DNA of 64,000 nucleotides from Nannobrachium achirus (lineage: Eukaryota; Chordata; Actinopteri; Myctophiformes; Myctophidae): the NCBI GenBank assembly GCA_963921795.1, contig OY997652.1:58764919-58828918 (forward strand), in the 5' to 3' direction. Positions within the stretch are counted from its first letter, which is position 1; each line of letters begins with the position of its first letter. Made by a program: the position numbers and the translations under genes. The notes beneath the pieces are model-generated. The model was not told the origin of the DNA. It searched no databases and was given only the letters and a program-made list of their open reading frames with translations. Below are positions 16,172 through 32,304 of the stretch, piece by piece.

Positions 16172-16780
16172 ACAGCATACATTATACAGTATATCAGAAA
16201 TCAACAGCCTATGCTTAAAGGAAGCTTTTCTACATTTGCAGTATATATGCATCTACAGTACTAGCACACTAACTGCATAATAAAATGTATGTCCCTTTTT
16301 GTTGATTAACATATGGAGAATATATTGGGCCATAACATTACTTCTTCACCAGCTCACTGGCGAGGAACGTGGTTGCGTTTCTCCTTCCTCTTCCCGGCCT
16401 GCTTCTCCTTTGGGGCAGAGGTCACAGGGGTTGTAGGTGCCTGGGCTGGAGCCTGCACTGGGGCAGGTGCTGGGTACAGAGGTTGCAGGTTTTGCATGGG
16501 ATAAAAGGCCATGTGAGGCCCAAGCTGTGCCACCGGAGCTTGCATCTGCTGCAGAGGTTGTTGTTGGGGTGGTGGAGGTGGTGGCATGGCTTGGCGATCC
16601 GCAGTGGCAGTGGGTCCAGGTGACTGCTGTCTGTCTGAGCCCACAGATCCTCTGCGCTTCTCCTGGCGGTTGTCTCCCTTGCGGCGGGCATCGCGGTGGT
16701 CACGGTCATTGTAGTATGGCTTGAATGACCTGGGTGCCACACCCTTGGGGTCACGAGCAGGTGCTCCGGGGCCCCTAACA
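16172..16780 (-). repeat. 3' LTR, proximal 609 bp (rest in gap)
   Basis: It matches 31696-32304 base for base as far as I can read. On the viral strand it begins TGTTAGGGGCCCC directly after the purine run AGAGGGGG. It contains the last 142 codons of the 3' ORF and part of U3. The promoter, R and U5 parts lie in the gap. Confidence 0.85.
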
Positions 16781-17577
16781 CCCCCTCTGGCACCCTGGTT
16801 CTTCTCGAGTGCAGCCACAACATCATCGGATGGCCACACTTTGGGGTCTCGAGTAACCTCTCGAATCCCCTGGGAATTCTTCTCCCATTTTCCCCGGATC
16901 ATCCTGGGGCCCAGGATGGTTTCCAGGATGCCGAAGCGGTTTCGCCCTGCTGCCTGGGTCTCGATAGTTGCCCACACTTCGCCAGACTGGTAGCGTAGGT
17001 TGTTTTGCATGACCCTGTAGGTGGTCACGCACACAGGAACGATGGAGCGCCAGTTGTTTCCCACCAAGCGGCTGTAGATCACCGACCGCTTGATGGAAAC
17101 AGTTTTCAGCAGCACGTAGGTCTCCCAGTTGGGTGTCAGGAACGGATCTTTGTTGGACATATGCCCTCTGCGAATGCCCACGATGTCCTCCCAGACCTGG
17201 GGGATTTTCAGGCTGTCATCGGCGATTTTAGCACCTTTAGTATTATACAGCTGCATTCTGGGCATCCCAGCCTCCTCGTCCTCGTCGTCTTGGGTATCGG
17301 CAGGGGGAGGAATCACCACCCTCCAGACTGCCCCTCCTTCGAGCCCAGAGGGCTCAGAGTGTTCATCCATTGGAGCCGGAGTGGTTGCTCCACTCCGGTC
17401 CTCCTCCGGTTGGCCCTCGGAAAGTAAGTCATTTTCCTCAGGATCCATGGCAAGAAGATTGTCATCGTCCATGTCATCCAGGCTGATGATCTGCTCTTGT
17501 CTCTCGCTGGCCATGGCTAGGTCGTAGATGGGTTTAAATTCTTCACGCAGAATATTAAGTGCCTGAGCAACGTCCAT
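16354..17577 (-). CDS. 3' accessory ORF (407 aa) running into the LTR
   Basis: Function unknown. The start is ATG at 17577, the first AUG after a possible splice acceptor (CCCCTCAG, viral strand, near 17612). The N-terminal ~120 residues are very acidic (LDDMDDDNLLAMDPEEND, DTQDDEDEEAG) and could serve as an activation domain. A central folded-looking part (about 120-250) has many Trp and Tyr. The C-terminal third is basic and Pro/Gln-rich (PPPPPPQQQP) and ends in a Lys/Arg cluster (KEKQAGKRKEKRNH) suited to nuclear import or RNA binding. Codons 266-407 lie in U3, as with sag of mouse mammary tumour virus. By position it resembles foamy bel/tas or the 3' ORFs of fish retroviruses. A transcription or RNA regulator is my inference. 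No homology recognised. Confidence 0.8.
   Translation of the reverse strand: MDVAQALNILREEFKPIYDLAMASERQEQIISLDDMDDDNLLAMDPEENDLLSEGQPEEDRSGATTPAPMDEHSEPSGLEGGAVWRVVIPPPADTQDDEDEEAGMPRMQLYNTKGAKIADDSLKIPQVWEDIVGIRRGHMSNKDPFLTPNWETYVLLKTVSIKRSVIYSRLVGNNWRSIVPVCVTTYRVMQNNLRYQSGEVWATIETQAAGRNRFGILETILGPRMIRGKWEKNSQGIREVTRDPKVWPSDDVVAALEKNQGARGGVRGPGAPARDPKGVAPRSFKPYYNDRDHRDARRKGDNRQEKRRGSVGSDRQQSPGPTATADRQAMPPPPPPQQQPLQQMQAPVAQLGPHMAFYPMQNLQPLYPAPAPVQAPAQAPTTPVTSAPKEKQAGKRKEKRNHVPRQ
16781..16788 (-). other. Putative polypurine tract
   Basis: Viral-strand AGAGGGGG stands immediately before the LTR start TGTTAGG. It lies in the coding sequence of the 3' ORF. It is short. A stronger-looking purine run (AAAAGGGGGGG, 31511-31521 in the 5' LTR) is a rival. 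Confidence 0.55.
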
Positions 17578-17611
17578 ATAACAGCCAACGGGAGTTATGA
17601 CAAAAGCTAGC

Positions 17612-17640
17612 CTGAGGGGCTCCTTTTATGCAGCGCCTCA
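17612..17640 (-). promoter_or_regulatory. Possible internal promoter / acceptor before the 3' ORF
   Basis: Between the env stop and the 3' ORF start, the viral strand reads GCATAAAAGGAGCC (TATA-like) followed by CCCCTCAG|G (acceptor-like). Foamy viruses drive their regulatory genes from an internal promoter near this place. The match here is weak. Confidence 0.25.
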
Positions 17641-17655
17641 GGCCACGGCTCCTCC

Positions 17656-20600
17656 TCATGGGAGGGGACGCCCCTCCCTCTGAGCTCCTCCTCTCTTTGC
17701 ACACATCCATTTCAGCATGTCCTTGAGAGCTCTGCCCACGCCCCCTAGGAGGCCCAGGCGGTACAGTACTGAGAACACGATAAGCCATCCCAGTAACATC
17801 AAACAAGGGATAGCCCATTTGAGCACACCTGCTACAACTCTCCAGGAGGTCTGAAATACAGATGTGACTTCTTCGAACGCCTCTATAGTCCCTTCTTTTA
17901 CGGACTCTCCTATGTCGATAGCCGCATAACCTACTATTGAGGTTAACAGAAATGTGGCCGACTTGAAATCACCCCAGCCGGTCCTAGGCCTTTTCCTGTA
18001 ATCCGCCTCAGGCCATCGGTTAGGGTGACACGTACCATTAGTCATGTTGACTGCATGAGTTTTGGGGTACACGGCCTGCATGGAGAATGTTCGGGCCGTC
18101 CATCCGATTCCCGGATTCAATGATGGCCTCCCTGAGACTAGGTAATCAGATGGGGGAGCCCATGGCGTGCCGAAGTCCATGAACACTGAATCACATGGCC
18201 CTAAAAGGGCTCCCACCCAACCAGCCTGTCCACAGGTGCCATAACAATGGCAATTGCCTTTGCCGTTGTTGTTACAAAATGGACCGTTGGCAAATCCCCA
18301 ACGATTCAGTAGGTACGCATCGGGCGGCCAGAAGTAAGGAAACCCCTTGTCCAAGAGCCTAGCTGACACAGAATCAAGGGGTCCACACCGTTCAGTCCGC
18401 CCTGCCCAGTCTAGGGTGTCCTGCTTCGGTCCTAGTGGAGACGTAGGGGAGGCCTGGTAGCAACGTACCAACATCGCCGGTGCCCCTACTCCCTCTGTTG
18501 GGTTGACAAACTCCCTTTCTTGTCTTCCTATCACAGGCCTCCACCTCCAGGAATCATATTTTTTCTCCAACACAGGAGAGTCATACCAGTGCATGTTGTT
18601 CCATGCATGCTCCTGGGGAGGAGGATTGCGTGTGACATAATATCGTGCCACCATTTTCTTAGCGTCACAACCTATTTCGGCAGCTTGGTCCCTTTTAAGG
18701 GGACCCCAATTGATCCATGCGACCTCATGACCATCGCCCTCGGTCACGTGGGTTATGGTTCTGGTGGAAGCTATATCCACCATGGCAGAAGTCGCCTCAT
18801 CCACATGGGTTGCTGGATGAGTGTCTTGGGTTGTACACTGGCTCTGATCTTCCAAGGTACAATACTGCTTTCCCCTGATACCATATGTAGTCTGAGGATA
18901 CGCTCCCACCTGGGCTCCTGTGGCCTTGTACGTAGGTTCCAACCCCCAGCGCAGGATAAAACCAGTGTCGGTTTTCTTCGCTAATATGAGGGGTGGAGGA
19001 AGAGAGATTTTTCCTTGGTTCCGATCGTCTTCTGGTAGTCTAGAGAACGGCTTTTGGGGGTCTTCCCTCTTCCAATCCAATATCCATTCCCGAACAGGCC
19101 TTTCAGTCTTGTCCGGATTGATATTAGGGTTCGGCCTGGTCTCTTCTGGAGGATCTTTGTTATTTCCCCCCAGAGTGACCATGAAGGAGCCCGGGTAAAG
19201 AGTAGGGTTGGCCCCTGATGTCCCTTCACCCCGCCCGATTAATTGGCGCCATGAATACAGTTGGAATCCCAAAACTTGGGCCGCAAACTGTTGATGAAGG
19301 AACATCTTCAGCCTTTCCTCCTCTGTGTTCCCAGGTCTAGCCCAGCACTTATCGAGGAGTTTCACTTCTTCGTTCGTCAGGCCCAAACCCGCATAGTTTT
19401 TTATGTTGTTTAAAGGCCCTTCATGATCCCATTTACCCCACGAGGTCTGTGAGGCTGTCAAGTCAGGGAACACCCTAAACCTCCTCAGCATAGTTCTGAA
19501 GTCTACTCTGCATGAGGATTGACCAGGGATTATAGTCCCATTCGTGCGGACAGTTAGGGAGTCCCGTGGGATCCCCATCCGTTTTCCTTCACGACAGATG
19601 GGTATTAGTTCCCCCATCTTGTTCGCTAGGCGTTTGATGACTTTCTCCACCGTAAGTCCCCTCCATGGGAGGTCGGTGGGGTCGAGCTTGGCTGCTACAC
19701 ACGTGAGCAATGAATCAACCACCTTGGTTCCCCATGGACCCTCTATTGCCCCAACCTGGTCAGCTGATAACACCGGAGTGTCCATGTAGTATAGAGTTTT
19801 CCCACCAGCGAGCGGCCGATTTTTCATCCACAGCAAGCCAGGTGGGTAGGAGTACATCTTCTTGCCTGGCTTGGTTATCCCCACAATCCACTTAAACCAT
19901 TTGGTAGTGATTCTGTGGGGACAGCCACCCGCTTGGTCGGTGACCGGTGGTGGCTTGTAGCCAGGCGTAGCCCTCCTTGCTCTCGGGGAAGAGGAATTAT
20001 TCCTCAGTGGTGACACGTAGCTCAGCAGCGCTTGGAGTTCCCTCTCAGGGGACGGTGGCCAAACAGTGAGCAAAGTCACTTTTTCAGCGGCTATATCCCC
20101 TTCCAAGGCTAACTCTCTGCGATGTATCCGTAGTTCCACCGCCTCGGCTCCATCCACTGAGGCATCGGAGCAATTGGATATGTCTTCCCACAGTCCCCAC
20201 TCCTTCTCACTGCTGTAGCGAGATCGGGCAGTGACCGTGGTACATTGGTATACTTTTTGAATCCCTTTGGCCAGTTTGACGCTTGTAGATATCTCACCGA
20301 CAGGGTCGGATGGGTAGACTCTCAGTACTACCGCCCCCTCTGCCCCCTGGGATACCTCGTCTACTTGGTCACTGAGATCCTGCCATGTGATATGACCGTT
20401 ACAACCATGTCTAGGTTCAAGCACCCAACACTCAGGTTCCATGCTGGCTACTGAACATTCTGGGGGCTCACCCCAGCCGCCTGCGGGCGGGCTACTGCCC
20501 AGTGCCGTGGCCTTATAATTATTATAGGCCAACCACCGGTCAGTGAGATTTTCAGGAACACAGGGGATAGGGCTGGTTATACGTGCGTATACTACCGGCA

Positions 20601-20952
20601 CCCCCTCATGCTCTCTGATAGTTGGGTCTCTGAATTCCCATTCCATGCGAGTCTTGGGGTACTTGAGGGCCCTTACGAATCCCAGCACCATCACCACTGC
20701 CATTATCAGAAGGGTCCCCTTCATAATGTGCCTGGTGATTAGGTTGGTGATGGAAACCTTGGGCTTGTGAGCCATACTAGGTGCAATCCCCTCGGGCTCT
20801 GTTACTGGTTCCCCAGACTGCACGGTTTCCTCTTCTGTCGAGGATATCAGGCCCTCTCTCGACTCCTCAAGATGCGTTGAGCGGGCCAAGGTGATTGTCC
20901 TACCCATTCCAGGAGCCTCCAACAGGGCTATACGGACCAGGCGGGCATCCAT
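17656..20952 (-). CDS. Env-like glycoprotein (1,098 aa)
   Basis: Likely the envelope glycoprotein for receptor binding and fusion. I start it at ATG 20952, the first AUG after the strong acceptor at 20996; an upstream GTG in frame (20973) is unlikely. Residues 1-77 look cytosolic and acidic, then a hydrophobic segment (about 78-96, LLIMAVVMVLGFV) could be an uncleaved signal-anchor, as in foamy Env leaders. The ectodomain has many Cys and potential N-glycosylation sites near 135, 260, 318/319, 471, 969 and 972. A furin-type RARR is at 324-327. A Cys-rich patch lies near 893-920. The C-terminal membrane anchor is about 1045-1069 with a short basic tail. No gammaretroviral CX6CC motif is seen and no evident fusion peptide follows RARR. 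The length is near that of epsilon- and spumavirus Env. Identity rests on position and topology. Confidence 0.8.
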   Translation of the reverse strand: MDARLVRIALLEAPGMGRTITLARSTHLEESREGLISSTEEETVQSGEPVTEPEGIAPSMAHKPKVSITNLITRHIMKGTLLIMAVVMVLGFVRALKYPKTRMEWEFRDPTIREHEGVPVVYARITSPIPCVPENLTDRWLAYNNYKATALGSSPPAGGWGEPPECSVASMEPECWVLEPRHGCNGHITWQDLSDQVDEVSQGAEGAVVLRVYPSDPVGEISTSVKLAKGIQKVYQCTTVTARSRYSSEKEWGLWEDISNCSDASVDGAEAVELRIHRRELALEGDIAAEKVTLLTVWPPSPERELQALLSYVSPLRNNSSSPRARRATPGYKPPPVTDQAGGCPHRITTKWFKWIVGITKPGKKMYSYPPGLLWMKNRPLAGGKTLYYMDTPVLSADQVGAIEGPWGTKVVDSLLTCVAAKLDPTDLPWRGLTVEKVIKRLANKMGELIPICREGKRMGIPRDSLTVRTNGTIIPGQSSCRVDFRTMLRRFRVFPDLTASQTSWGKWDHEGPLNNIKNYAGLGLTNEEVKLLDKCWARPGNTEEERLKMFLHQQFAAQVLGFQLYSWRQLIGRGEGTSGANPTLYPGSFMVTLGGNNKDPPEETRPNPNINPDKTERPVREWILDWKREDPQKPFSRLPEDDRNQGKISLPPPLILAKKTDTGFILRWGLEPTYKATGAQVGAYPQTTYGIRGKQYCTLEDQSQCTTQDTHPATHVDEATSAMVDIASTRTITHVTEGDGHEVAWINWGPLKRDQAAEIGCDAKKMVARYYVTRNPPPQEHAWNNMHWYDSPVLEKKYDSWRWRPVIGRQEREFVNPTEGVGAPAMLVRCYQASPTSPLGPKQDTLDWAGRTERCGPLDSVSARLLDKGFPYFWPPDAYLLNRWGFANGPFCNNNGKGNCHCYGTCGQAGWVGALLGPCDSVFMDFGTPWAPPSDYLVSGRPSLNPGIGWTARTFSMQAVYPKTHAVNMTNGTCHPNRWPEADYRKRPRTGWGDFKSATFLLTSIVGYAAIDIGESVKEGTIEAFEEVTSVFQTSWRVVAGVLKWAIPCLMLLGWLIVFSVLYRLGLLGGVGRALKDMLKWMCAKRGGAQREGRPLP

Positions 20953-20979
20953 CTCGGCTTCCCCCCCTCTCACTCTCTC

Positions 20980-21015
20980 TTACCGGCAGGATTACCTGAA
21001 AGAGAGAGCAACAAG
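20980..21015 (-). promoter_or_regulatory. env splice acceptor, with a donor 12 nt further on
   Basis: The viral strand reads TTGCTCTCTCTTTCAG|G, a textbook acceptor ending at 20996. Only 12 nt later comes CCG|GTAAGAG, a good donor (GT at 20983-20982). No AUG lies between the acceptor and the env start at 20952. Confidence 0.75.
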
Positions 21016-21044
21016 GTTAGGGGCCCGCCGTGGAACAGCATCAA

Positions 21045-22574
21045 TTACTCGGAATCCTTTGACCTTCTCTCCTTTTTAAGGGAAAGGCCAGCCAAGAACT
21101 TCCATAGGGTATCCCCCTTAGGCCCCAACCCTGCACTGCCCTGGAAGTGCACCCTGCGTGGTTTGATCCGTGAGACCCTTAATGGGTCTCCCACCACTGG
21201 ATTCTCGGTACCAGGGGTTATGTCCACAGAGATCCCTCTAATGGGATGTGGCATAGCCCCCACCTCCAGAGTGATTGAGAAAACCACGAATTGGTACTCT
21301 CCCCCTCCGGCAGGCCGGATAGTAGACCCCACAGCGATAGGCTCACCTCCTGACCCCTTGCGGGTCACAACGGGGCCATTCCTCACCAGGAGTTTGGTTG
21401 ATAAGGTCTCTCTGAAACCTTTATCATTTAACTCCCCGCTGACTGTGGTAAACCAGTCAGGTGTATCGCCATCTTTAGGCATATCTGTTTGGAACGACAC
21501 TGCCACCAGGCCAGGTATCGCCAGAAGGGCCCTGGCCGCCAGCATCATACGAAACAGACTAGCACAGTCAAGCAGCAGGTCCATCCCCTTGATATTGCTA
21601 GCTTCGCTAGGCAACTGATATTTGGGGAAAAGCTTGGCTCGCTCCTCCGTGTCCTTCACCCAGAAAGTATCTGGACCACGGTTTGAATACAACCTGGATC
21701 CCCTGGAGGGCATAGCCCTGGGGAAAGAGAGGCTGAGAGTTCGCTCGAGGGAGGTTTCCATCAGACTGTCCAGATTCTCCATGCTGCCCTTGAAGGTGAT
21801 ACCTCCACGGCCGTGGGCTCCTTTGCGAACCGGTGCGTCACCGGCTTGCAGGAAACCACCGCCCTTGGTCAGATGGATACCTGAGTTCAACTTCACTCCC
21901 TCATGGTATTTGCATTTGGCCAGGGCGAAACCTAGCCATGTGCATGAGCAACTGGCCGCTGTTTCAGCGGTCATGACAGGATAGGCAGCCAGAGCAATGC
22001 GCGGTCCGTACAGGACGTAGCACCCCGGGCATACCAACGCTCTACATCCCCTGGGTCCTTCTTTAGGCCCAAAGGTAAAGGCCTCGCCACCAGGGCGAAG
22101 GAGGGGTTTGCTATCATGCGGCACTTGGGGCGGGCGGTTGCGAGATGGACCCTGCCACAGCAGGTTGGTCACTGGGATCAGGCATAGCATGCACTTCCCC
22201 AGACTGTGTCCATACCTTTGCCAGAGAATGGGGTGGCCCGCAGGCCCCGCCACATACTCTGGTTTAGGTAACCATCCATCCTCTGCCATATCCAGGCTTG
22301 GATTATGCACCACTGACCTCACCGTTGGCATGAAGCCCTCTCTGGCCAACTTCACCGCTCCATCGGACACGCCTAACCAGGCGCTGGCACTCTTTCCAAC
22401 TCCACTGTCCCCAGAGGCTGGGGACCGTCCTGGCGCTACACAGATCAACACTTTTTGTCTGGCGCACTCCAAAGCGAAGGGCATCTCCTTACGAGAACCA
22501 ACAGTTACCTGCCCCATGCCTGGCGCAACCTCACCATCCCTGACTAAGGGTGTACAACCCGAAGCTTCGGCCAT
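21045..22574 (-). CDS. Novel 509-aa ORF between pol and env
   Basis: I do not recognise this protein. ATG at 22574 has a favourable context (G at -3, G at +4) and lies 10 nt beyond the last base of the pol stop. It is the first AUG after a strong splice acceptor at 22740, so a spliced mRNA is likely. Features: a sequence GDSGVGKS at 55-62 that fits the P-loop pattern G-x4-G-K-S and is preceded by the hydrophobic strand KVLICVA (41-47); Cys pairs CMLC (128-131) and CPGC (182-185) that could bind zinc; a further CSC/CKYH group (209-224); a beta-rich looking C-terminal third; and a basic tail (KKERRSKDSE). It has no signal peptide. Most retroviruses have no ORF of this size here; lentiviral vif occupies the same slot but is much smaller. 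A regulatory or host-antagonist role is possible, but nothing proves it. Confidence 0.75.
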   Translation of the reverse strand: MAEASGCTPLVRDGEVAPGMGQVTVGSRKEMPFALECARQKVLICVAPGRSPASGDSGVGKSASAWLGVSDGAVKLAREGFMPTVRSVVHNPSLDMAEDGWLPKPEYVAGPAGHPILWQRYGHSLGKCMLCLIPVTNLLWQGPSRNRPPQVPHDSKPLLRPGGEAFTFGPKEGPRGCRALVCPGCYVLYGPRIALAAYPVMTAETAASCSCTWLGFALAKCKYHEGVKLNSGIHLTKGGGFLQAGDAPVRKGAHGRGGITFKGSMENLDSLMETSLERTLSLSFPRAMPSRGSRLYSNRGPDTFWVKDTEERAKLFPKYQLPSEASNIKGMDLLLDCASLFRMMLAARALLAIPGLVAVSFQTDMPKDGDTPDWFTTVSGELNDKGFRETLSTKLLVRNGPVVTRKGSGGEPIAVGSTIRPAGGGEYQFVVFSITLEVGAMPHPIRGISVDITPGTENPVVGDPLRVSRIKPRRVHFQGSAGLGPKGDTLWKFLAGLSLKKERRSKDSE

Positions 22575-22584
22575 TTCTCAGTGC

Positions 22585-25500
22585 TCACCTGGTCTTGCGA
22601 ACTTGGTCTATATGAACTATGCCCGAGTTCTCCAACCTAAGCCTATGTGGGCCAAGGATCTCAGCAACGGTGTCTTTTGATTCACACTTCTTGCTGGGGT
22701 TTCCTGGCAGGGGTTTTCTCAGCACCCAAACAGCTTCACCTGTGGAGAAAGGACAAGAGACACCCGTGTTATCTTTGGACACACATCTCTTCTCCTCTCT
22801 CCCAAGGTTGACCGATTGGTGAATTTTGAGAAGAGGAGAAGGCTCATCCCAAGAGCTCTCCATGCCCTCTTTAATTATCTGTTCTTTTACTGAGCGAACA
22901 GCCCTCTCCGCAACTCCGTTAGTCTTAGCATGGTACGGAACTGAGTATTCCACCTGAATACCCTCATCCTCCAGCAAAGACTTAACGCTAGTGTGCGTAA
23001 AATAAGTCGCATTGTCCATTCGCAGGGACTGTACCCCGTTCTCTTCCCGTAGGAATTGGGATATACAGTGGCAAATGATCGCCGCAGTAGGTGTCTTAAT
23101 AGGATACACCCTTATGGCACCAGGCCCGTTATCAGCGATAACCAGCCCGTGTTTGTGTCCTTTCCGCGTTGTCTGGGACATAGGCCCAAACACATCGGCG
23201 GAAAAATTCGTGCCCGCTATGGGCACCGCAATTTGCCCTGGAGGTACAAATTCCGGTTTTGTGCCCCTTACTAGGGCACAGCGTTCACATGCCTTACGCA
23301 CTGTGATAGCTCTTTGCCTAGCTTTTGGGATCAGCAAATCCTGCGTCCGCAGGTACTTGAGTAGCCTTTGGCTGCCCACGTGACCGAGACCCACATGAAT
23401 CGTCCGGATTATGTGGTCGGCCTCGTCTTCGGGCACTTCCACCACCTTGCCTTTGCCCCACGCCATCGGCAGGGCTAGGCGCAGGCGTTTCAGCCCAACT
23501 GCATTGGCCAGCTGTCTGCGCTGGGCCAGGGCATCCACCTCCCGGTTCCCGGTGAAGTGGATGCCTTCTCCATCCGTATGGCTCTTAATCCATTTCCATG
23601 AGAGCCTCATGTTTTTGGATTGCTCTACTATAAGGGCCCAGAGTTCACCATGAGCCATGGGGCGGCCTGAGCTTGTCTCATAGCCTTTGGCTTCCCAGAA
23701 CTCTAGATTCTCAGCCCCACCTTGGTAGCAGTAGTCACTATCGGTCACGATCAACAGCTTCTGGATATGTTTACCCCTAGCTGTGATAATTCCCTCTAGT
23801 ATGGCAGTCACCTCGGCCATCTGGGCCGAACCGTCAATCCATCCTGAGGATGATTTCACGGTCTTGTCCTTGTGTTTAAGGACAAATGCCCATTTGGCCC
23901 GGTCACCGTCGGCCTTCTGCTGGCTCCCATCAGTGTACAGGACCCAGGGGGGTTCCTCCACGGGGGCCTGGGGCTTAGGCTTTGCTTCGATGGGGCATTT
24001 GGTGCCGGTGGTTATAAACTTAACCCGAGGGTCAGTAAGCATTCCGGCCCAGTGTCCCCACCTCTGCGACATGGCTCGTGACCCTGAGATAGTCCCCTTG
24101 GATGCGCACTGCAGTGCGGGGTACTCCGTGGTGACTATCACGTCTCGGTCTTGAGCGAGGTCTTTCAGTCCGTTCAAGAACTTGAATACTCCGCAGAGAA
24201 TTCGCTCTTGGTCGGGATATCTCTGCTCTGGGCTGGAGAATTGCATGGACAAAAAGAGACATGGGGCTTTGCCCAAACGGTTCATGCACCTGAGAGTTAT
24301 TCCCTCACCTTCCAGGCAAGGGAAAACCTCCAAGTGCTTCCCGGGGTCTCTTTTCTCCAAATCGGTGCAATGTTCCAGCACATGGGTTTGGAATATAGAC
24401 CAGTGGGGTTTGGCGTCCGCTATCGGTATGTTCCGGTTGCGGGGGTTCTTACCCTGTAGTGCCTTTCCCTTGAGTCTATGTAGGGGTGCTGCCTTGGCAG
24501 CGTACCCCGGGACGTGGTTCATTATGTGACCACACTTTCCCAGGGCATGATCCAGGTGAGCCAACAAGGTAGGCTGGGGAAGGGCAGCGATTTGTTCTAG
24601 GTACTCTTTGCTGACCGATTTCCCAGTGTCTGTTATGTTGAAACCCAGATACCTCAAAGAGTATTTTGCGATTTCGCATTTCTTGAGGCCAATCTTGAGC
24701 CCTGAGGAAGCCAGACGGGTGACCACCTGGTCTAGCAGGTCAAGGTGCTCGTCTTCAGTCTCATTTGTCCAGTAAATGTCGTCCACATATACCGTGACAT
24801 CCAGGCCTTTCAGGATGTCCTCAACGACACTCTGAAAGTGCGAGGGGCTAGACTTAAAGCCCTGTGGTAAAACGGTCCAGCCATAGGAGACTCCGTTCCA
24901 GGTGAACGCAGTTTTTTGGGTGGACAGTTCGTCTATTGGCACACACCAGAAGCCATTCTTCAGATCCAGACAGGACTTGAACCGTTTATTTGGCAAGTTC
25001 CTGGTTGTCTGCGCAATGTTGAACATTGACCTGGTATCCGAGGTCGACCTCGCGTTCAGGGCAATGAGATTATGTACTAGTCTCCATCCTTCCCCACCTG
25101 GTTTTGGAACCCCTAGGATAGGTGTGTTGGTGAGGGCGGAGTCCAGTCGCTTCAGTTGCCCGCCTTGCTCCAGCTCATCGATGGTAGCTGTGAGCTCGGC
25201 TTTGCACCGAGGGTCTACTCGGTGCTGGGGCTGTCTGTCTGGCACTCGACCCCTAATAGTATATGTATACTTGGGGTCGACCCTGCCAGCGTCATTCTTA
25301 TGCGTCGCATGACGGCCTCTCTTAAGAATTCCTCTGATTCGGTCTTTCTGTTGGCCGTCCGACGCTTCCACAATCTTTTCAATCTCCTTTGCCACATCTA
25401 TGGGACGCATGTATTTAAGGCTATATTTAATACATACGTTCTTAGGTGGCTCTGGGGTATCAAGACCGGGGAAAAGGAATTCCTTCTCATAATCATCTGA

Positions 25501-26034
25501 AGTTATTTCCTCCAGGTTGATCATGATCAGGTCTTTGGGGGCTATCAAGGGTTCTGCATATACGGGGCCAACGACCCCGTGTATTCCATGCTTGTCCCCC
25601 GTCCCCATAGTGGTGATTGAGCCATCACCTAGTTCCACCTCCATGGATCCCGTAATGGGAATACCTGTGTGCAGTGTTATTTCAGCCCCGGTATCTAAAC
25701 GATACTGGTCTGTCCCTAACTGACACAAAAGTTTCCCATCTGACTCCCTTGTCTTGCTTGCTATAGCGTTCAACAGGGGTCGTTTGGTGGGGTCTATTGT
25801 CAGGTGTATGATAGCTGAGGGAGGCTCGGTCACTGTTCCTTCTCCTGTTCTTGAGCCTCGCGCGCGGCTCTTGCCGCCGCTCTCAGAGCTATCCGTGCCT
25901 CCTTCTCCTCCTGTGGGAGGGCGGCCCATTCTTCTGCAGGCAGGAAGGTCGGGACCTTCGGTCCCCCCTTCCCTGCCTGTTTCTGCGCCGGAGCCTTTTT
26001 CGGGGGAGCCTTTTTGGTGGCTCCCCGCTCCCCG
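22585..26034 (-). CDS. Pol: protease, RT, RNase H, integrase
   Basis: The pol frame is open from the frameshift site (26034) to TGA at 22585, 1,149 codons. The first Met in frame is at 25929, and the numbers below count from it. Protease: LDTGAE with D-T-G at 79-81. Reverse transcriptase about 200-500: catalytic Asp 322 (LDLKNG) and YVDD at 381-384, preceded by LPQGF. RNase H about 660-810: D667, E706, D730, H784, D799. Integrase: zinc H845, H850, C881, C884, then catalytic D912, D972 and E1008 with the standard 35-residue spacing, and a C-terminal SH3-like part (GEAVWVLRK). All catalytic residues are present. Pol would be made as Gag-Pol by -1 frameshifting and cut by its own protease. Residues YVDDIYW and LGFNIT recall foamy-type RT; no separate pol mRNA start is needed. 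Confidence 0.95.
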   Translation of the reverse strand, partial: RGAGSHQKGSPEKGSGAETGREGGTEGPDLPACRRMGRPPTGGEGGTDSSESGGKSRARGSRTGEGTVTEPPSAIIHLTIDPTKRPLLNAIASKTRESDGKLLCQLGTDQYRLDTGAEITLHTGIPITGSMEVELGDGSITTMGTGDKHGIHGVVGPVYAEPLIAPKDLIMINLEEITSDDYEKEFLFPGLDTPEPPKNVCIKYSLKYMRPIDVAKEIEKIVEASDGQQKDRIRGILKRGRHATHKNDAGRVDPKYTYTIRGRVPDRQPQHRVDPRCKAELTATIDELEQGGQLKRLDSALTNTPILGVPKPGGEGWRLVHNLIALNARSTSDTRSMFNIAQTTRNLPNKRFKSCLDLKNGFWCVPIDELSTQKTAFTWNGVSYGWTVLPQGFKSSPSHFQSVVEDILKGLDVTVYVDDIYWTNETEDEHLDLLDQVVTRLASSGLKIGLKKCEIAKYSLRYLGFNITDTGKSVSKEYLEQIAALPQPTLLAHLDHALGKCGHIMNHVPGYAAKAAPLHRLKGKALQGKNPRNRNIPIADAKPHWSIFQTHVLEHCTDLEKRDPGKHLEVFPCLEGEGITLRCMNRLGKAPCLFLSMQFSSPEQRYPDQERILCGVFKFLNGLKDLAQDRDVIVTTEYPALQCASKGTISGSRAMSQRWGHWAGMLTDPRVKFITTGTKCPIEAKPKPQAPVEEPPWVLYTDGSQQKADGDRAKWAFVLKHKDKTVKSSSGWIDGSAQMAEVTAILEGIITARGKHIQKLLIVTDSDYCYQGGAENLEFWEAKGYETSSGRPMAHGELWALIVEQSKNMRLSWKWIKSHTDGEGIHFTGNREVDALAQRRQLANAVGLKRLRLALPMAWGKGKVVEVPEDEADHIIRTIHVGLGHVGSQRLLKYLRTQDLLIPKARQRAITVRKACERCALVRGTKPEFVPPGQIAVPIAGTNFSADVFGPMSQTTRKGHKHGLVIADNGPGAIRVYPIKTPTAAIICHCISQFLREENGVQSLRMDNATYFTHTSVKSLLEDEGIQVEYSVPYHAKTNGVAERAVRSVKEQIIKEGMESSWDEPSPLLKIHQSVNLGREEKRCVSKDNTGVSCPFSTGEAVWVLRKPLPGNPSKKCESKDTVAEILGPHRLRLENSGIVHIDQVRKTR
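22587..22592 (-). promoter_or_regulatory. Splice donor CAG|GTGAGC overlapping the pol stop
   Basis: On the viral strand the last pol codons and stop read ...ACCAGGTGAGC, a near-consensus donor (GT at 22588-22587). Together with the acceptor at 22740 it would bound a 151-nt exon lacking any AUG. Confidence 0.5.
22738..22765 (-). promoter_or_regulatory. Splice acceptor for the 509-aa ORF
   Basis: The viral strand reads TCTCTTGTCCTTTCTCCACAG|G, a long pyrimidine tract and CAG ending at 22740, inside the integrase C-terminus. No AUG occurs from here to the ORF start at 22574. Confidence 0.75.
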
Positions 26035-29000
26035 TTTTTTGAATCCTTGGCCTCGGTTGTCTCAGCCTTAGGCTGGGTTTCTTTCCTCGGGGCCTTCTTG
26101 CCTTGCGGCTTGGGTTGCTCTGACCCTTTTTGATTCCCATGTTTTTTCTTCAATGAGAGCAGCGCCTTGGTCTGATCGTACTTCATACATTCAGTCCGTA
26201 GCTGCGCCTGTGTCCAGTGGGCACAGCCCACGGCCAGGTTTAGTCCTCCTGGGATTTTAGAGAACAACTTCTCCAGCAGGAGGGTAGCTTGGTTGATAGG
26301 CACGGAGCAGGAGATTTTATCGGCTGCAACAGCCAAGTTCAATTCCCCCTCCGCTACCAGGGTGGCTAATTCTTCCACCATCCTCTCTCCAGGGTTCACC
26401 CCGGGAATTCTCACGTCCATTGAGCTCAGGGACTCGAGGGAGGCCCCTCCGGGGACGTCCAAGCCCCTGACATGGCCCAGTATGCGGGCTGCCTCTGGAT
26501 CGTGATAGAGTATAGACCCCTCAAATAGAGGGATTGTTCTCCGCAAGTAGTTTGCTTGCGTCTCGCCCGGGTCTCTCGCCGTGGTCAAATTCTTCATCAA
26601 CTGCGCCTTGCTAAGGAGGTCGCTAACGTATGATTCTTCCCCTGAAAGGTGGCCTTGGCCCGAGAGCCGGTTCCCTTCCGGGCGAAACGAAGCACCCATT
26701 CTGGTGCTGCTTGTTATTGGGGTGGGTGCCAATCTGGAAGGAAATGAATATTCCCGCCTGGCTTGGTATGGGGATAAATCTTCCCTCATGGTTATACCGG
26801 GATCCGAGGGGGTGTTGTTGTAATGTACAAACCTCCTTGCAGGCTCTGCCATTGCCTGATCCCTCAGTATGACCTGTTCCCGCATCGCTTCATAACCCGC
26901 GTGCAGGTAAGCATCCTTGAAGGACCCGGTCAGGCCATGTTGCCAGAGGACTCTCTCCGCCGAGGGTGATCGCGCCAGTGCTCTGGCGGTTTCCCACTCG
27001 ACAGGGTATCCGTCGCACATTTGTCCTGACTCGTTGCCCCTAAGCTCTCCTTCGTCCCCAGCCGGGACACCTTCGATACCCGTGGTCCAGCTAAGTCCAC
27101 TGCGGGTTTGGAAGAGCTTGCCTTTCAGTGGAGATTCCACTTTTAGAGGCCTCAGTAGCCGGGCTTTGGCGTTCTTGTTCCTAGCTCTGGGAGGCGGGCC
27201 CCGAGGGTACATTTGCCTTTCCCTGGACCTGGAACGAGAGCCTGACCTAGACTCTGACTCAGAGACCGAAGAGGCCCTTGAGGATGCCCTAGACTGGGAT
27301 TCCTCGTCCTCCGGCTCGTAGTCCGGGTCGGAGTCTTCCTCGCTCTCTTCCTCCTCCTCGATACGGGGGGAGTTCCGAACTAGAATCCCTGGGGGTTCAA
27401 GCGGGCGAGGGGCCTGCGGTGGCGGGTTGAACCGCACCCTAGGGGTCCCTCTAGTAGCTTGTCTACCCCTTGGGGGTTGGTTTTGGTTCTGCTCTCTCCG
27501 CGTGACGGAGAAGGAGCGGTTTGGGGTGCCTGGAGCAGAGCTCCCAGATCGGGACTCCGCACCGGCACTGCTTCTTTGGCTGTTTCGGCCCGTTGACCTG
27601 ACGGATCCAGCCTCTGAAGCCTCGGCAGCCTCTCTGGCCCGTACCAGAGCCGAGACTGCCTCGAAGTCCCCATCGTTCACCAACAACCGAATGAACATGT
27701 TGTGTGTGTTTCTGAGGGAATAAATGGCGGCCAGTATGGCCTCTTGCATCCATGTCTTCCTCAAGCCTTGGACCTTGAATCTACCCCATTTCATCATGAT
27801 CGCCAGTCTGTAGGGGTTACCTGGCGCTCCGGTCCCCTCGAAAGAGGACCGTGCGAGCAGTGCTTTCCTTATGTCCCGCTCCATTTTAGCCTTCTCCTGG
27901 TCTTTGAGGGCTCTAAGTTGTAGCGTGGATTCCCTAAGAGCCAGGTGGACTATTTTGGAGGCACCCGGGAGGATTCCCAGGCAGGGAGTCACCACAGGTA
28001 TACCGGCATCCAGGTTGTATGGTATTCTGGCCTCCATCACGTCCTTTCGGAGGTTTCTGTATGGAGTACCACCTTTTCCTGTGAGATACGTCTCCCACTT
28101 TTCCGTCGTTGACAAAGACGTGGTTGTAAAGGTGAGTATTGCCCACAGGCCATGAGTGGGGTGTTCCACTAGGTCCCCATTTTGAACGTCGATCTCCATG
28201 GGGGTGTTCCTAGGGGGTTCCAGCACCACTCCCAGATCCTCGTTGGAGGGTCCGGGGAATGCCCCGTGATCTGACACCTCGAGTCGTCGGGATGTAGGTG
28301 AGACAGGATTTCGCTCCATAGGTATGGGCTGTTCAACCTGTCCCGGTGTTGAGGCGGCCAAAGGCCTCCCGAGGTCAGGTGATGACCTCGGGGCCTGTTC
28401 TGGCGCCACAATCCTTGAGGGGTCCAGAGGGATAGTTCCCCGGTAGAGGGGCGGTGGATCCCTGTGGGCGTCCCCTCTTCTCTGTGACCGTGTCTGCACC
28501 CGGCCTGTATCCTGGTATAGGGGACCGGGTGCCGGCAGCTGTCTAGGTGCCCCAACGGGGGCCTGGGGGGTTTGGAGCGGTGTGGTTCCGAGGTCAGGAC
28601 CTCTCACCTCTCGAGGCTGCCCCCTAGGTTCCTCCGCGGGAAGTGGGCTTTGTGAAGGCCCTGCCGGGGGATAGGTGGTTAACCACACATTCCGGTCCTC
28701 CGGGGGAGGGCCTCTCATCCCATTGTTTTGTTCGCCTGTCATGGGCCAAGTTCGATTGGCCGTTATGCGGTGACTCTCCACCCTTTGTATGAGATCTTGC
28801 ACCACGTTAGTCCTTCGGGCGTTTGCGAATGTGTCGCCCCACCCGTGCCTCTGGTGTGGCGGCCAGGCCTCCATCTGGGCTCGACGGAGAGTGTTAGCCA
28901 GCCATGCCTCTGGGACCAGCAAAGTTATTTCTAGCCGGTCGTCGGGCAGGCCTTGGAACATCTCCATAAAGCACCAAATGCTGAGGGCCTGGTCGTAATC

Positions 29001-29882
29001 CCACGTACCAGTTCCAAACAAGGTCATAACTAGGTTATAAACTTGCATGTCATAGGCTTGAGCAAAGAGCTTGCCATAGTATGCCAGAAGGGTAGACCTT
29101 TGGTCTTCCTCCCTGGTGCCTCTAGCAACATTCTGCATAGCCATGTTGATAATACCTTGATATCCTTTATGGGCAAGTTGGTATGGTGCACATACCAGTA
29201 CTTCTCCATTCTCGAGTTTTCGGTTTGGTCTGGACTCCACTATGTTTCGGCACCATGTGGCGTAGCTTTGACCTGCACCGTGTGCTATGGCTGCCGCCAT
29301 GCCCGCATTGTTGTCTAGGTACCTATTTGCGGGATTCACCACAAAGGGCCTGTTTCCTGCAGGCACGAGTTGTTCGAACCTTTCGGAGGAAATCTTTAGT
29401 TTCACCATTCTCTCGGGGGTTATGGTGTGTGTCCTGGCGGGGATTTGCCAGGAGAAAGTGTCCAGCACCTGAGGCGGCGGGGGAAGTCTCCCCTGCAGCT
29501 CAGGTTCAGCCTGTTCCCCGTCGTTTGTCTGGGGATCCCATTCTAGGCCACCGGTCCCTGTGGGGCCATGTAGCCAAGGAAGGGGGGCTGTAGCGTCGGC
29601 TCGCGTTGCTCCCTGATTCCAATTCAGCAACGTTTGGAGATCAGGATATGCGCTCCCCGTACTGGATTCGTAACGGGCCGCTTGTCCTCCGCATGTGTTA
29701 TGCAGTACTACTGGGGCCATTACGCCCATACTGTCGTAGGTACTGCTGTCAATGTCCTCGTCCCACGAGTCCACCGATGGGGGTGCCATGGTGCCAGTCG
29801 AGGGAGTAGGGGAGGCAGGCCTCGCCCCGCCAACCGCTCCCGCAGGAGCGTTGTCTGTGGCGGTGGGATAGGCAGAGTCCAT
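25830..29882 (-). CDS. Gag-like structural polyprotein (1,350 aa)
   Basis: Identified by position between the primer site and pol and by the frameshift signal; not by clear similarity. It is about twice the usual Gag length. Residues 1-400 include a PPPP late-domain-like motif (134-137) and a helix-rich part (about 150-380). Residues 400-560 are Pro-rich and look disordered. A helical block lies at about 580-760. Residues 755-910 are Ser/Arg-rich with an acidic stretch (EEEEESEEDSD) and an RS run (SRSGSRSRSRER). Residues 1080-1200 look capsid-like, with a weak echo of the major homology region around GETQANYLRR. The end (1235-1350) is Lys-rich and probably nucleocapsid-like. No CCHC zinc knuckle is present, as in foamy viruses. 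ATG 29882 has a good context (G at -3 and +4). The large N-terminal part might be extra proteins fused upstream of a normal-sized Gag. Confidence 0.85.
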   Translation of the reverse strand: MDSAYPTATDNAPAGAVGGARPASPTPSTGTMAPPSVDSWDEDIDSSTYDSMGVMAPVVLHNTCGGQAARYESSTGSAYPDLQTLLNWNQGATRADATAPLPWLHGPTGTGGLEWDPQTNDGEQAEPELQGRLPPPPQVLDTFSWQIPARTHTITPERMVKLKISSERFEQLVPAGNRPFVVNPANRYLDNNAGMAAAIAHGAGQSYATWCRNIVESRPNRKLENGEVLVCAPYQLAHKGYQGIINMAMQNVARGTREEDQRSTLLAYYGKLFAQAYDMQVYNLVMTLFGTGTWDYDQALSIWCFMEMFQGLPDDRLEITLLVPEAWLANTLRRAQMEAWPPHQRHGWGDTFANARRTNVVQDLIQRVESHRITANRTWPMTGEQNNGMRGPPPEDRNVWLTTYPPAGPSQSPLPAEEPRGQPREVRGPDLGTTPLQTPQAPVGAPRQLPAPGPLYQDTGRVQTRSQRRGDAHRDPPPLYRGTIPLDPSRIVAPEQAPRSSPDLGRPLAASTPGQVEQPIPMERNPVSPTSRRLEVSDHGAFPGPSNEDLGVVLEPPRNTPMEIDVQNGDLVEHPTHGLWAILTFTTTSLSTTEKWETYLTGKGGTPYRNLRKDVMEARIPYNLDAGIPVVTPCLGILPGASKIVHLALRESTLQLRALKDQEKAKMERDIRKALLARSSFEGTGAPGNPYRLAIMMKWGRFKVQGLRKTWMQEAILAAIYSLRNTHNMFIRLLVNDGDFEAVSALVRAREAAEASEAGSVRSTGRNSQRSSAGAESRSGSSAPGTPNRSFSVTRREQNQNQPPRGRQATRGTPRVRFNPPPQAPRPLEPPGILVRNSPRIEEEEESEEDSDPDYEPEDEESQSRASSRASSVSESESRSGSRSRSRERQMYPRGPPPRARNKNAKARLLRPLKVESPLKGKLFQTRSGLSWTTGIEGVPAGDEGELRGNESGQMCDGYPVEWETARALARSPSAERVLWQHGLTGSFKDAYLHAGYEAMREQVILRDQAMAEPARRFVHYNNTPSDPGITMREDLSPYQARREYSFPSRLAPTPITSSTRMGASFRPEGNRLSGQGHLSGEESYVSDLLSKAQLMKNLTTARDPGETQANYLRRTIPLFEGSILYHDPEAARILGHVRGLDVPGGASLESLSSMDVRIPGVNPGERMVEELATLVAEGELNLAVAADKISCSVPINQATLLLEKLFSKIPGGLNLAVGCAHWTQAQLRTECMKYDQTKALLSLKKKHGNQKGSEQPKPQGKKAPRKETQPKAETTEAKDSKNGERGATKKAPPKKAPAQKQAGKGGPKVPTFLPAEEWAALPQEEKEARIALRAAARAAREAQEQEKEQ
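26003..26040 (-). promoter_or_regulatory. -1 ribosomal frameshift signal (gag-pol)
   Basis: The viral strand carries the slippery heptamer A AAA AAC (26040-26034) in the correct gag phase (TCA AAA AAC). After a 7-nt spacer comes an 8-bp perfect stem GGGGAGCC/GGCTCCCC with an 8-nt loop (26026-26003). The -1 frame is open from here through pol. Gag ends 67 codons later in the 0 frame. Confidence 0.9.
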
Positions 29883-30208
29883 GCCTGAAACTTTTTAGGT
29901 TGGTCGCAAAGGTTGTTATAATATTATTAGATGTTTCTCAACTGCTATTTTATCTAGTTCCTAATGGAGATGTTTTTTACCGATTACTGGCCGTCTGCTG
30001 CGCACACAGACCTCCACTTCACTATGTTCAAAATCTCCGACGCTCCGGGGAGTTTTGTGAATAAAAACACTTAAGCCTTGATAATATTAACTATCCTTTA
30101 CTTCTGTAGTAATAACTATATTCCAAGGGTCTCTCGGCTATTCTTTATGTGGCGGTGGACACGAATTTAATTAATCAATTACTAATCAATAATCAATAAT
30201 CAATCAAT
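29883..30208 (-). other. Proviral leader (5' UTR / packaging region)
   Basis: 326 nt lie between the primer site and the gag ATG. Possible major splice donors on the viral strand are GAA|GTAAAG (GT at 30101-30100) and CGGTAAAAA (GT at 29980-29979); neither is a strong consensus. ATCAATAATCAAT repeats at 30173-30207 lie next to the primer site. Confidence 0.55.
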
Positions 30209-30226
30209 GTCCACCCAGGGACGCCA
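30209..30226 (-). other. Primer binding site for tRNA-Asn
   Basis: The viral strand reads TGGCGTCCCTGGGTGG, complementary over 16 contiguous bases to the 3' end of vertebrate tRNA-Asn(GTT), CCA included; of the next two bases one matches. It directly follows the LTR end ...CATTACA. Confidence 0.9.
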
Positions 30227-30530
30227 TGTAATGAGCTCGGAGCTACTGAATGCCCTTTCACCTTAAAGCACTCCTCTAAGCCGCCCGGAACCCTCCGTAA
30301 GCTTGCTAGGCCCACAAAGTTACCAGATCTCTTTTTAATAAACACTGTCACTAACACTACACTATACCTTTAAGTTAACACAAACAGGTGTTATAACCTT
30401 TCTCATTTGTATAAACCTACTATTACTGTATATGCACCTATTACTGTACGAATACAACTTTCTCTGAATAAAGACTGAACTGTCTATGAAACCCTCTTTA
30501 ACTGGTGAATATTATTACTATCTACAGCTA

Positions 30531-30542
30531 CTTTATTTTATA
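30531..30542 (-). promoter_or_regulatory. Second TATA / poly(A)-like motif in LTR
   Basis: The viral strand reads TATAAAATAAAG. It contains both a TATA-like core and AATAAA, about 300 nt before the LTR end. It could be the poly(A) signal that closes R. Confidence 0.35.
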
Positions 30543-30752
30543 GACCAAGAATATTGCACCTCTCTTGAGAAATGTAGACCATAAGTCTGGATGGAGAATG
30601 CCAAAACCACAAAGACAATATAAAGTGTGAAACTGTTACCTTGTAGCTTTCTCCCAGGGACTGTTTTTTGGAGAAAAGCAGCTTGACTTATTTAATACAA
30701 AAGAGCCCACTGCGGACAAACTGTCCGTCCGGTTAGGGTTGGGAATTTGTAT

Positions 30753-30758
30753 TTTATT
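30753..30758 (-). terminator. Candidate poly(A) signal AATAAA
   Basis: The viral strand reads CAATAAAATAC within the putative R/U5 area, downstream of the TATA box at 31195. Either this or the AATAAA at 30531-30542 could be used. Confidence 0.4.
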
Positions 30759-31190
30759 GTCTGCCAAGCATACCCAACTGACACCTGCCCGCGCAGGGTC
30801 AGTCACTGAGAAGGTGAAAGACTTTTAAATTAAGAAAATATACTTGTTGATTCTTACCAAAAGTCTAACTCAGCTCCAACAGCCAGAAGTTGCCTTGAGT
30901 GCCCTGAGGTGCTAACACCTCTTTCCCATGGAAGCGGAACTTCCCCGAAGGGAAGTTAAAAAGTCAAAACCTTAAAAGTTGTAAACTCTGGAAAATGAAT
31001 TCAGACAGACACCAAGCAAAAGTGAATAAAAAGCTTTTAGTGAAGTAAAAACAGTTACAAATTATAAGCTCACCAATACAGAAATTGGTAATGAAAATCA
31101 AAAAGAAGTACAGTATGTGTACTTAACTAAACAGAGTCAAACTCTCTCTAAGTAGACAGAAAAGAACTGCCCAGAGCTACGGATACACAG

Positions 31191-31199
31191 CCTTTTATA
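31191..31199 (-). promoter_or_regulatory. LTR TATA box
   Basis: The viral strand reads CCCTATAAAAGGCTG, a canonical TATA element. Initiation would be expected near 31165, giving a U3 of about 1.1 kb and R plus U5 of about 0.9 kb. Confidence 0.65.
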
Positions 31200-31877
31200 G
31201 GGTGCTCCGCTACAACATCTCAATAGAGTTACACACACACAACTTCAGTTTAGCACACACACATTTGGCACGCGCTTGTGCACGTACATGCATGAACATG
31301 CACGATGTTTCGCAATGGAGACAGTTGAAGGCCAGACCAACTCCCCAGTCCACGTGAATTTGGGGAGTTCTCCGGTTCACATGTTAGAAGTCGACATGTT
31401 GCCCTTTACTCCCTCAGGAAGCGTTATCTCATGTTGGCAATAAGAAGATAACGGTTCGTTAGCGCGGTACAGGAATGTCGGGGAGTCAATGATACCGCCT
31501 GGCACCATCTACAACCCCCCCTTTTCCACCCCAAGTCCAAGGCCGTGCCTCGCAGGTGCAGGCAACGAAGCGGCTAGTGTAACCAGTATGTCATGTTCTA
31601 ACTATGAGTACATTCATTTTTTAACCTTTACTCATGTCAGTGAAGAAACCACGTATATATGTAGTTCTTACATGCACATACAGTATATCAGAAATACAGC
31701 ATACATTATACAGTATATCAGAAATCAACAGCCTATGCTTAAAGGAAGCTTTTCTACATTTGCAGTATATATGCATCTACAGTACTAGCACACTAACTGC
31801 ATAATAAAATGTATGTCCCTTTTTGTTGATTAACATATGGAGAATATATTGGGCCATAACATTACTTCTTCACCAGC

Positions 31878-32304
31878 TCACTGGCGAGGAACGTGGTTGC
31901 GTTTCTCCTTCCTCTTCCCGGCCTGCTTCTCCTTTGGGGCAGAGGTCACAGGGGTTGTAGGTGCCTGGGCTGGAGCCTGCACTGGGGCAGGTGCTGGGTA
32001 CAGAGGTTGCAGGTTTTGCATGGGATAAAAGGCCATGTGAGGCCCAAGCTGTGCCACCGGAGCTTGCATCTGCTGCAGAGGTTGTTGTTGGGGTGGTGGA
32101 GGTGGTGGCATGGCTTGGCGATCCGCAGTGGCAGTGGGTCCAGGTGACTGCTGTCTGTCTGAGCCCACAGATCCTCTGCGCTTCTCCTGGCGGTTGTCTC
32201 CCTTGCGGCGGGCATCGCGGTGGTCACGGTCATTGTAGTATGGCTTGAATGACCTGGGTGCCACACCCTTGGGGTCACGAGCAGGTGCTCCGGGGCCCCT
32301 AACA
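31878..32304 (-). pseudogene. 5' LTR copy of the 3' ORF C-terminus
   Basis: This is the duplicated last 142 codons of the 3' ORF, present because they lie in U3. An apparent start codon for this frame comes from the flanking host repeat, so it is not an independent gene. Confidence 0.85.

What the first reader, a model, noticed from the sequence alone, without database searches (positions are those of the whole stretch)
16172..32304. An apparently intact giant retrovirus of about 17.6 kb
Five long ORFs (1350, 1149, 509, 1098 and 407 aa) are all open and all Pol catalytic residues are present. A 13.4-kb internal region is well above known retroviruses, including foamy viruses and epsilonretroviruses of around 12-13 kb. 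The combination of giant Gag, extra ORF between pol and env, and LTR-overlapping 3' ORF fits no group I know, so this may be an undescribed lineage.
Basis: partly seen in the sequence, partly recalled or inferred. Interest (0 to 1): 0.95.

Follow-up and report, generated by a model that had tools for sequence, protein, structure and literature searches.

The report
Giant foamy-like fish retrovirus, macrodomain Gag
This is an apparently young, giant retrovirus insertion that likely belongs to an already described group, the foamy-like retroviruses of ray-finned fish; what stands out is that its Gag shell protein carries a macrodomain, predicted to bind or remove ADP-ribose, a mark that cells likely use against viruses.

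Summary
On the minus strand there are five long open frames (1350, 1149, 509, 1098 and 407 aa). The 5' LTR is 2078 bp, and a sister copy in the same genome measures 17,602 bp. A 200-N gap cuts the window's 3' LTR (609 bp visible). The claim of an undescribed lineage does not hold: RT and integrase match foamy-virus proteins best among solved structures, and size and gene order (gag-pol-acc3-env-3' ORF) match the acc3-bearing fish FLERVs of 17.4-17.5 kb published in 2017 (PMC5512871). Three features go beyond what I found in print. (1) Gag contains a macrodomain (Pfam above cut-off, fold match), present in the four FLERV families found here; the most canonical copy is closest by sequence to human PARP14. 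(2) A conserved A AAA AAC heptamer plus hairpin at the gag-pol overlap predicts Gag-Pol frameshifting, unlike the spliced Pol of mammalian foamy viruses. (3) Two kinds of non-autonomous proviruses lack RT and most of Env yet keep the macrodomain, the 3' accessory frame and all or part of acc3; in one kind acc3, and probably the macrodomain, is under purifying selection. Family A looks young: 25 loci have gag, pol and acc3 all open; 8 compared LTR pairs are 99.9-100% identical.

The parts
30227..32304 (-). 5' LTR, 2078 bp, TG...CA
   Evidence: Same length as, and 100% identical to, the 3' LTR of the C24 copy
30207..30226 (-). Primer binding site TGGCGTCCCTGGGTGGACAT, tRNA-Asn-like
   Evidence: Directly after the 5' LTR; tRNA-Asn identity is recalled, the genome check did not complete
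25830..29882 (-). gag, 1350 aa, no CCHC zinc knuckle
   Evidence: homologs P0021 and P0022 of 1382 and 1367 aa
28989..29339 (-). Macrodomain inside Gag (aa 182-298)
   Evidence: PF01661 E 1e-7, 32.4 bits against cut-off 22; fold matches to macrodomains; aligned loops
26034..26040 (-). Candidate -1 frameshift heptamer A AAA AAC, in gag phase
   Evidence: Only in-phase A6C of gag, at the start of the open -1 frame; also in families B, C, D
25959..26033 (-). Hairpin-forming stretch directly after the heptamer
   Evidence: -27.8 kcal/mol, z -2.4; families B, C, D z -5.4, -3.6, -4.0, against single-base shuffles
22585..26061 (-). pro-pol frame (PR, RT, tether, RNase H, integrase), -1 relative to gag
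   Evidence: best solved matches are foamy virus PR-RT and IN
21045..22574 (-). acc3-like ORF, 509 aa, with 10 invariant Cys/His
   Evidence: Homologs P0006-P0013 at 55-71%; families B-D at 29-35%; no family match and no significant solved match
17656..20952 (-). env, 1098 aa from ATG: leader, hydrophobic segment near aa 82-104, RARR at aa 331, C-terminal membrane segment (aa counted from the GTG at 20973)
16354..17577 (-). ORF5, 407 aa, 3' accessory ORF running into the 3' LTR; position of bel1/acc1
   Evidence: homologs in family B and in the A' and B' satellites
16781..16788 (-). Polypurine tract AGAGGGGG before the 3' LTR
16172..16780 (-). Visible 609 bp of the 3' LTR
   Evidence: 100% identical to the 5' LTR
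15972..16171 (.). 200-N gap that cuts the 3' LTR

Best explanation
This is a provirus with foamy-virus-like RT and integrase that likely belongs to the giant, acc3-bearing foamy-like endogenous retroviruses of ray-finned fish; its Gag carries a macrodomain, and its Pol is likely made as a Gag-Pol fusion by -1 ribosomal frameshifting. Shown: gene order, LTR/PBS/PPT anatomy, about 30 near-identical copies, LTR pairs 99.9-100% identical in 8 other copies, and a macrodomain in the Gag of the four FLERV families found in this genome. Inferred: translation slips at A AAA AAC ahead of a hairpin to make Gag-Pol. The macrodomain, carried by Gag into the cell and present at assembly, would bind or strip ADP-ribose and so blunt PARP-type antiviral responses; it was probably captured from a host PARP9/14/15-like gene. 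acc3 is predicted to be a zinc-binding accessory protein, and ORF5 a Tas-like regulator of the LTR. Non-autonomous relatives lacking RT and most of Env are predicted to ride on the autonomous proviruses while keeping the macrodomain, acc3 (whole or in part) and ORF5.
Against: No formal RT tree (no FLERV, epsilon or class III references held). The acc3 name rests on position and length (509 vs 465 aa). Only one 3' accessory ORF, where AliFLERV has two. PBS looks tRNA-Asn-like, not tRNA-Lys as in AciFLERV and AliFLERV. The window Gag alone finds PDB macrodomains only weakly (best E 0.016) and stays below all NCBIfam cut-offs. P0022 scores below the Pfam cut-off (18.2 vs 22) and has NPAD for NPAN. 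The macrodomain model is of moderate confidence (pLDDT 50, pTM 0.51). In family B's copy L016 the -1 frame meets a stop before PR, apparently through a small indel. An ATG in the pol frame (25929) leaves spliced Pol possible. The Env profile finds no solved structure at E <= 1. The selection test used open copies only.
Confidence: 0.8

Rival explanations
1. It is a member of a truly undescribed retroviral lineage, or an epsilon- or SnRV-like virus that grew large.
For: Only one 3' accessory ORF, tRNA-Asn-like PBS, predicted frameshifted Pol and macrodomain Gag are not in the parts of the FLERV paper that I read or searched. A review reports macrodomain proteins in fish ERVs of epsilon type (PMC4977317, passage).
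Against: RT and IN are closest to foamy viruses by a wide margin; size and gene order nearly equal AliFLERV's.
Confidence: 0.07
2. Pol is made from its own spliced mRNA as in mammalian foamy viruses, starting at the ATG at 25929; the A6C heptamer is chance in a lysine-rich tail.
For: [quoted passage not shown] an ATG in context AGAATGG sits in the overlap, and family D also has an ATG in the pol frame before PR.
Against: The heptamer is the only in-phase one in gag and sits where the -1 frame opens; it is followed by a hairpin in four families. Family C has no ATG in the pol frame between the heptamer and PR.
Confidence: 0.25
3. The non-autonomous proviruses keep the macrodomain and acc3 only because the DNA there holds packaging or splicing signals; the proteins are passengers.
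For: Gag 5' ends often hold packaging signals (recalled). A' keeps only parts of acc3. The selection signal may date from autonomous ancestors, and broken copies were left out of it.
Against: In open B' copies dN/dS is 0.36 for acc3 (bootstrap 0.26-0.52, 13 copies) and 0.42 for the macrodomain part (0.16-0.84, 13 copies); 12 of 13 full-length macrodomain frames are open.
Confidence: 0.35

Closest known systems
AciFLERV and AliFLERV, acc3-bearing ray-finned fish FLERVs (PMC5512871, section 6 read, other passages seen)
   Same: About 17.4-17.6 kb; gag-pol-acc3-env-acc order; young LTR pairs; several copies
   Different: Those had stops, frameshifts and TE insertions, tRNA-Lys PBS and two or more 3' accessory genes; here frames are open, the PBS is tRNA-Asn-like, one 3' ORF. 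A macrodomain or Gag-Pol frameshift is not mentioned in what I read or searched
Mammalian foamy viruses (Spumaretrovirinae)
   Same: Closest RT/RNase H and IN among solved structures; Gag without CCHC; 3' ORF in the bel1 position
   Different: About 10 kb genomes per PMC5512871; Pol from a spliced mRNA (PMC3705302, passages); no acc3 in their five-ORF gene set; no macrodomain known to me (recalled)
Viral and PARP macrodomains (coronavirus Mac1, alphavirus nsP3, rubella p150, PARP9/14/15)
   Same: Macro fold, NPAN-type and FGCG-type loops
   Different: Here inside a retroviral Gag; the GGG loop is weakened in the window copy
Macrodomain proteins in fish ERVs (Basta et al. 2009, seen only as cited in PMC4977317)
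   Same: Macrodomain in a fish retroviral element
   Different: Described there as additional ORFs of epsilon-like elements; here inside Gag of foamy-like ones. The 2009 paper is not held

Membership tests
acc3-bearing ray-finned fish FLERVs | Genome of about 17.4-17.5 kb | tested here: met
   17,602 bp in the C24 copy; window copy consistent but gapped
acc3-bearing ray-finned fish FLERVs | Order gag, pol, acc3, env, 3' accessory gene | tested here: met
   order as
acc3-bearing ray-finned fish FLERVs | acc3 sequence homology to AciFLERV acc3 | not testable with these tools
   No FLERV sequence held; position and length only
acc3-bearing ray-finned fish FLERVs | Pol placed in the FLERV clade by a tree | not testable with these tools
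   No references held; only best-match scores
acc3-bearing ray-finned fish FLERVs | acc1 and acc2 between env and 3' LTR | tested here: inconclusive
   One 407-aa ORF; the paper found acc2 in 5 of 27 FLERVs
Spumaretrovirinae (foamy viruses) | Foamy-type RT/RNase H and integrase | tested here: met
   248 vs 101 bits; 43.7 vs 28.1 bits; best match, not a tree
Spumaretrovirinae (foamy viruses) | Gag without CCHC zinc knuckles | tested here: met
   0 of 3 Gags has one
Spumaretrovirinae (foamy viruses) | Pol from a spliced mRNA, no Gag-Pol fusion | tested here: inconclusive
   Conserved frameshift signal argues against it; no RNA or protein data
Spumaretrovirinae (foamy viruses) | Foamy-type Env | tested here: inconclusive
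   No solved match to the Env profile; leader-type hydrophobic segment only
Spumaretrovirinae (foamy viruses) | Tas/Bel1 transactivator in the 3' region | tested here: inconclusive
   ORF5 in that position, no family match
Macrodomain family PF01661 | Profile score above the curated cut-off | tested here: met
   32.4 vs 22 bits; relatives up to 55.4 bits; P0022 below it
Macrodomain family PF01661 | Macro fold | tested here: met
   on a model of moderate confidence
Macrodomain family PF01661 | ADP-ribose binding or hydrolysis | not testable with these tools
   NPAN kept; GGG loop weakened in the window copy
Epsilon-/gammaretrovirus type | Pol closest to MLV-type enzymes | tested here: not met
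   Foamy virus matches score over twice as high; no epsilonretrovirus reference was available

The most novel reading that the evidence does not exclude
Fish foamy-like retroviruses captured an antiviral-type (PARP14-like) macrodomain and built it into Gag, so that every incoming particle carries its own ADP-ribose reader or eraser. They make Pol by frameshifting rather than by foamy-type splicing. And they are parasitised by satellite retroviruses that dropped RT and most of Env but keep, under selection, the macrodomain and acc3.
Probability: 0.35. Interest if true: 0.82.

Novelty: new variant of a known kind. Interest (0 to 1): 0.55.

Why it matters
The virus is not a new lineage, but young, open copies let one read what decayed copies hide. 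If the Gag macrodomain is active, it would be a retroviral counter to PARP-type immunity delivered in the particle. If Pol is frameshifted, foamy-type spliced Pol need not be ancestral to the whole foamy/FLERV clade, which bears on how the two retroviral subfamilies split. The satellites point to which genes matter in the cell and make the unknown acc3 gene testable.

Tried and rejected
Rejected: undescribed lineage. Rejected: chimera, since about 30 loci share the gag, pol and acc3 frames. Considered lokiretroviruses: passages of PMC9040795 and outline with abstract of PMC12440569 seen; set aside after the foamy match. My first reading of a 610-bp LTR and a 16.1-kb element was wrong because of the N gap. 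PMC9503650 passages name no retroviral macrodomain.

Led nowhere: viral contigs with Pol, 4 pattern matches, no relative; acc3 structure prediction, pLDDT 29, not searched; acc3 profile vs PDB, best E 0.38, and Env profile, no row; NCBIfam for ORF3, Env and ORF5, 0 families. One search also lists SPX-titled and ribosomal chains; I took the SPX rows as matches to a fused carrier and did not check.

Selection test, rows dropped: of 18 B'-type loci examined acc3 used 13; out were L009 (cut), L021 and L032 (stop), L030 (partial), L033 (family C). The macrodomain used 13; out were L024 (divergent), L031 (stop), L027, L030 and L033 (no match). Leaving out further divergent copies (L020, L027, L028 for acc3; L020, L022, L032 for the macrodomain) gave 0.37 and 0.36, 10 copies each. 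Only open copies were used, which leans towards low ratios. Bootstrap: 60 replicates.

Literature limits: Basta 2009 and Ruboyianes & Worobey 2016 are not held; the latter, as I recall it, already reports long gag and larger-than-known genomes in teleost foamy-like ERVs and may say more. 'Not found in print' rests on the listings (some show only the top 10-25 papers) and the passages.
Full report
What is there. On the minus strand, from 32304 down to 16172, lies a provirus. Its 5' LTR (32304-30227, 2078 bp) is followed directly by a PBS (30226-30207). Then come gag (1350 aa), a -1 frame pro-pol, a 509-aa ORF, env (1098 aa from ATG) and a 407-aa ORF that runs into the 3' LTR. The 3' LTR starts at 16780 after a polypurine tract and is cut by a 200-N gap at 15972-16171. 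The 609 visible bases are identical to the 5' LTR. The sister copy on C24 has both LTRs, 2078 bp and 100% identical, with ATTTC on either side, and spans 17,602 bp by coordinates.

Copies and age. One search lists 31 full-length acc3 frames at 98-100% identity. One search lists 31 full-length pol (30 without a stop) and one truncated. One search lists 32 family-A gag loci, 29 with a full frame. Twenty-five loci have all three open. These searches score only the best candidates, so counts are lower bounds; env and ORF5 could not be counted. I looked at LTRs of nine copies other than the window's (C24, eight). In eight, both LTRs could be compared (one in part): 5 substitutions and one gap in about 16.4 kb. 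In the ninth the 5' LTR was not found in the fetched stretch. At the fish rate of 1.46e-8 quoted in PMC5512871 that is roughly 10,000 years. Against the window LTR, the best aligned stretches of the eight copies are 96.5-97.9% identical (C24 100%), so most are separate insertions, not duplicates. Target duplications are 5 bp in four copies (ATTTC, CTACC, AGTAC, GGTAC) and 4 bp (CATG) in one; the other four could not be read from the fetched ends.

What it is. Against all solved structures Pol scores 248 bits with simian foamy PR-RT and 235 with marmoset foamy virus, 101 with the best non-foamy RT and 80 with Ty3. The integrase scores 43.7 bits with PFV integrase and 28.1 with the best chain that I take, from recall, as non-foamy. 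Gag has no CCHC knuckle. Aiewsakun and Katzourakis 2017 (PMC5512871; [quoted passage not shown] A review (PMC6431247, passages) gives 'up to 17 kb'. The finding is thus likely another, better preserved member of that clade. I could not build a tree, since none of the reference sequences is held.

How Pol is made. Gag and pol overlap in the -1 frame. In gag phase there is exactly one A AAA AAC, at 26040-26034, just where the -1 frame opens; codon shuffles place one in the last 215 nt in 1.1% of trials. The same heptamer, in phase, precedes a hairpin in families A-D (z -2.4, -5.4, -3.6, -4.0 against single-base shuffles). In family B's copy L016 the -1 frame then meets a stop, apparently after a small indel. 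Mammalian foamy viruses make Pol from a spliced mRNA without Gag (PMC3705302, abstract and passages). If the signal works, FLERVs of this type make Pol as orthoretroviruses do. An ATG at 25929 keeps the spliced route open as a rival.

acc3 and ORF5. acc3 has ten invariant Cys/His (C128, C131, C177, C182, C185, C209, C211, C221, H224, H234) across 12 sequences from families A, B (with its satellites) and C and from unnamed sources, which suggests zinc binding. Its fold could not be predicted. ORF5 sits where foamy viruses carry bel1, is acidic near its N terminus and basic at its C terminus (by eye), and has relatives in family B and in the satellites. A Tas-like role is inference from position.

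Satellite proviruses. Two kinds lack RT and most or all of Env. B' (C3 copy: 8,836 bp by coordinates, LTR pair 873 bp and 100% identical, PBS present) keeps a 375-aa macrodomain ORF, an acc3-like ORF (466 aa from ATG in the C13 copy), an env leader remnant and the ORF5 relative. Its LTR region is 97-99% identical to family B, but its macrodomain ORF is only 47% identical to B's Gag at the protein level, so it is a mosaic. A' (C8 copy: 8,447 bp, LTRs 99.0%, same PBS as the window) joins Gag 1-323 in frame to Pol 695-1149, with a stop before the end (676-aa ORF), and keeps pieces of acc3, the env C terminus and ORF5 at 93%. One search lists 13 B' full-length macrodomain frames (12 open) and 17 loci whose frames look like A'; I read only two A' loci (L034, L038). 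In open B' copies dN/dS is 0.36 for acc3 (0.26-0.52) and 0.42 for the macrodomain part (0.16-0.84); with doubtful copies left out, 0.37 and 0.36. Part of that signal may date from autonomous ancestors. The pattern fits elements that use a helper's particle and enzymes but need their own host-facing genes.

Verdict. The macrodomain in Gag, the predicted Gag-Pol frameshift and the satellites are what deserve attention. The searches joining foamy viruses and macrodomains and fish foamy-like frameshifting listed no paper whose title or abstract reports them, but two key papers are not held.

Noticed in passing
L014, L015, L009/L013 (G000 C13, C21, C3): Non-autonomous B' proviruses with macrodomain ORF, acc3 and ORF5 relative but no RT and only an env remnant; the C3 LTR pair is 100% identical.
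   Followed up: yes
L034 and L038 (G000 C8, C13): A' proviruses share a central module (98.5% identical) of Gag-macrodomain joined to RNase H-integrase plus short acc3, but sit in different LTR/ORF5 backgrounds (LTR stretch 82% between the two; ORF5 93% and 54% to the window), a sign of modular exchange.
   Followed up: partly
L037 (G000 C7:48967000-48969600): An open frame of 741 aa seems to fuse the Gag macrodomain part directly to an ORF5-like part.
   Followed up: partly
P0022 (Gag homolog): The second Asn of the NPAN loop is Asp, and the Gag frame runs on into sequence that resembles the start of Pol, so this macrodomain may have lost activity.
   Followed up: no
window 36292-36927: Array of 12-base units (GTATCATGGTCA) with three overlapping open frames of 193-255 aa; likely a plain tandem repeat.
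   Followed up: no
window 13801-14107 and 62772-63414: Two tandem arrays that both have a 160-base period.
   Followed up: no
window 33259-33419 and 32304-32592: Long inverted repeats (71-73 nt arms, 93% complementary) beside the 5' LTR; they look like MITEs, one arm starting at the LTR edge.
   Followed up: no
window 60001-62000: Strong GC skew (-0.31), perhaps due in part to CACCATA-type tandem repeats at 60791-61470.
   Followed up: partly
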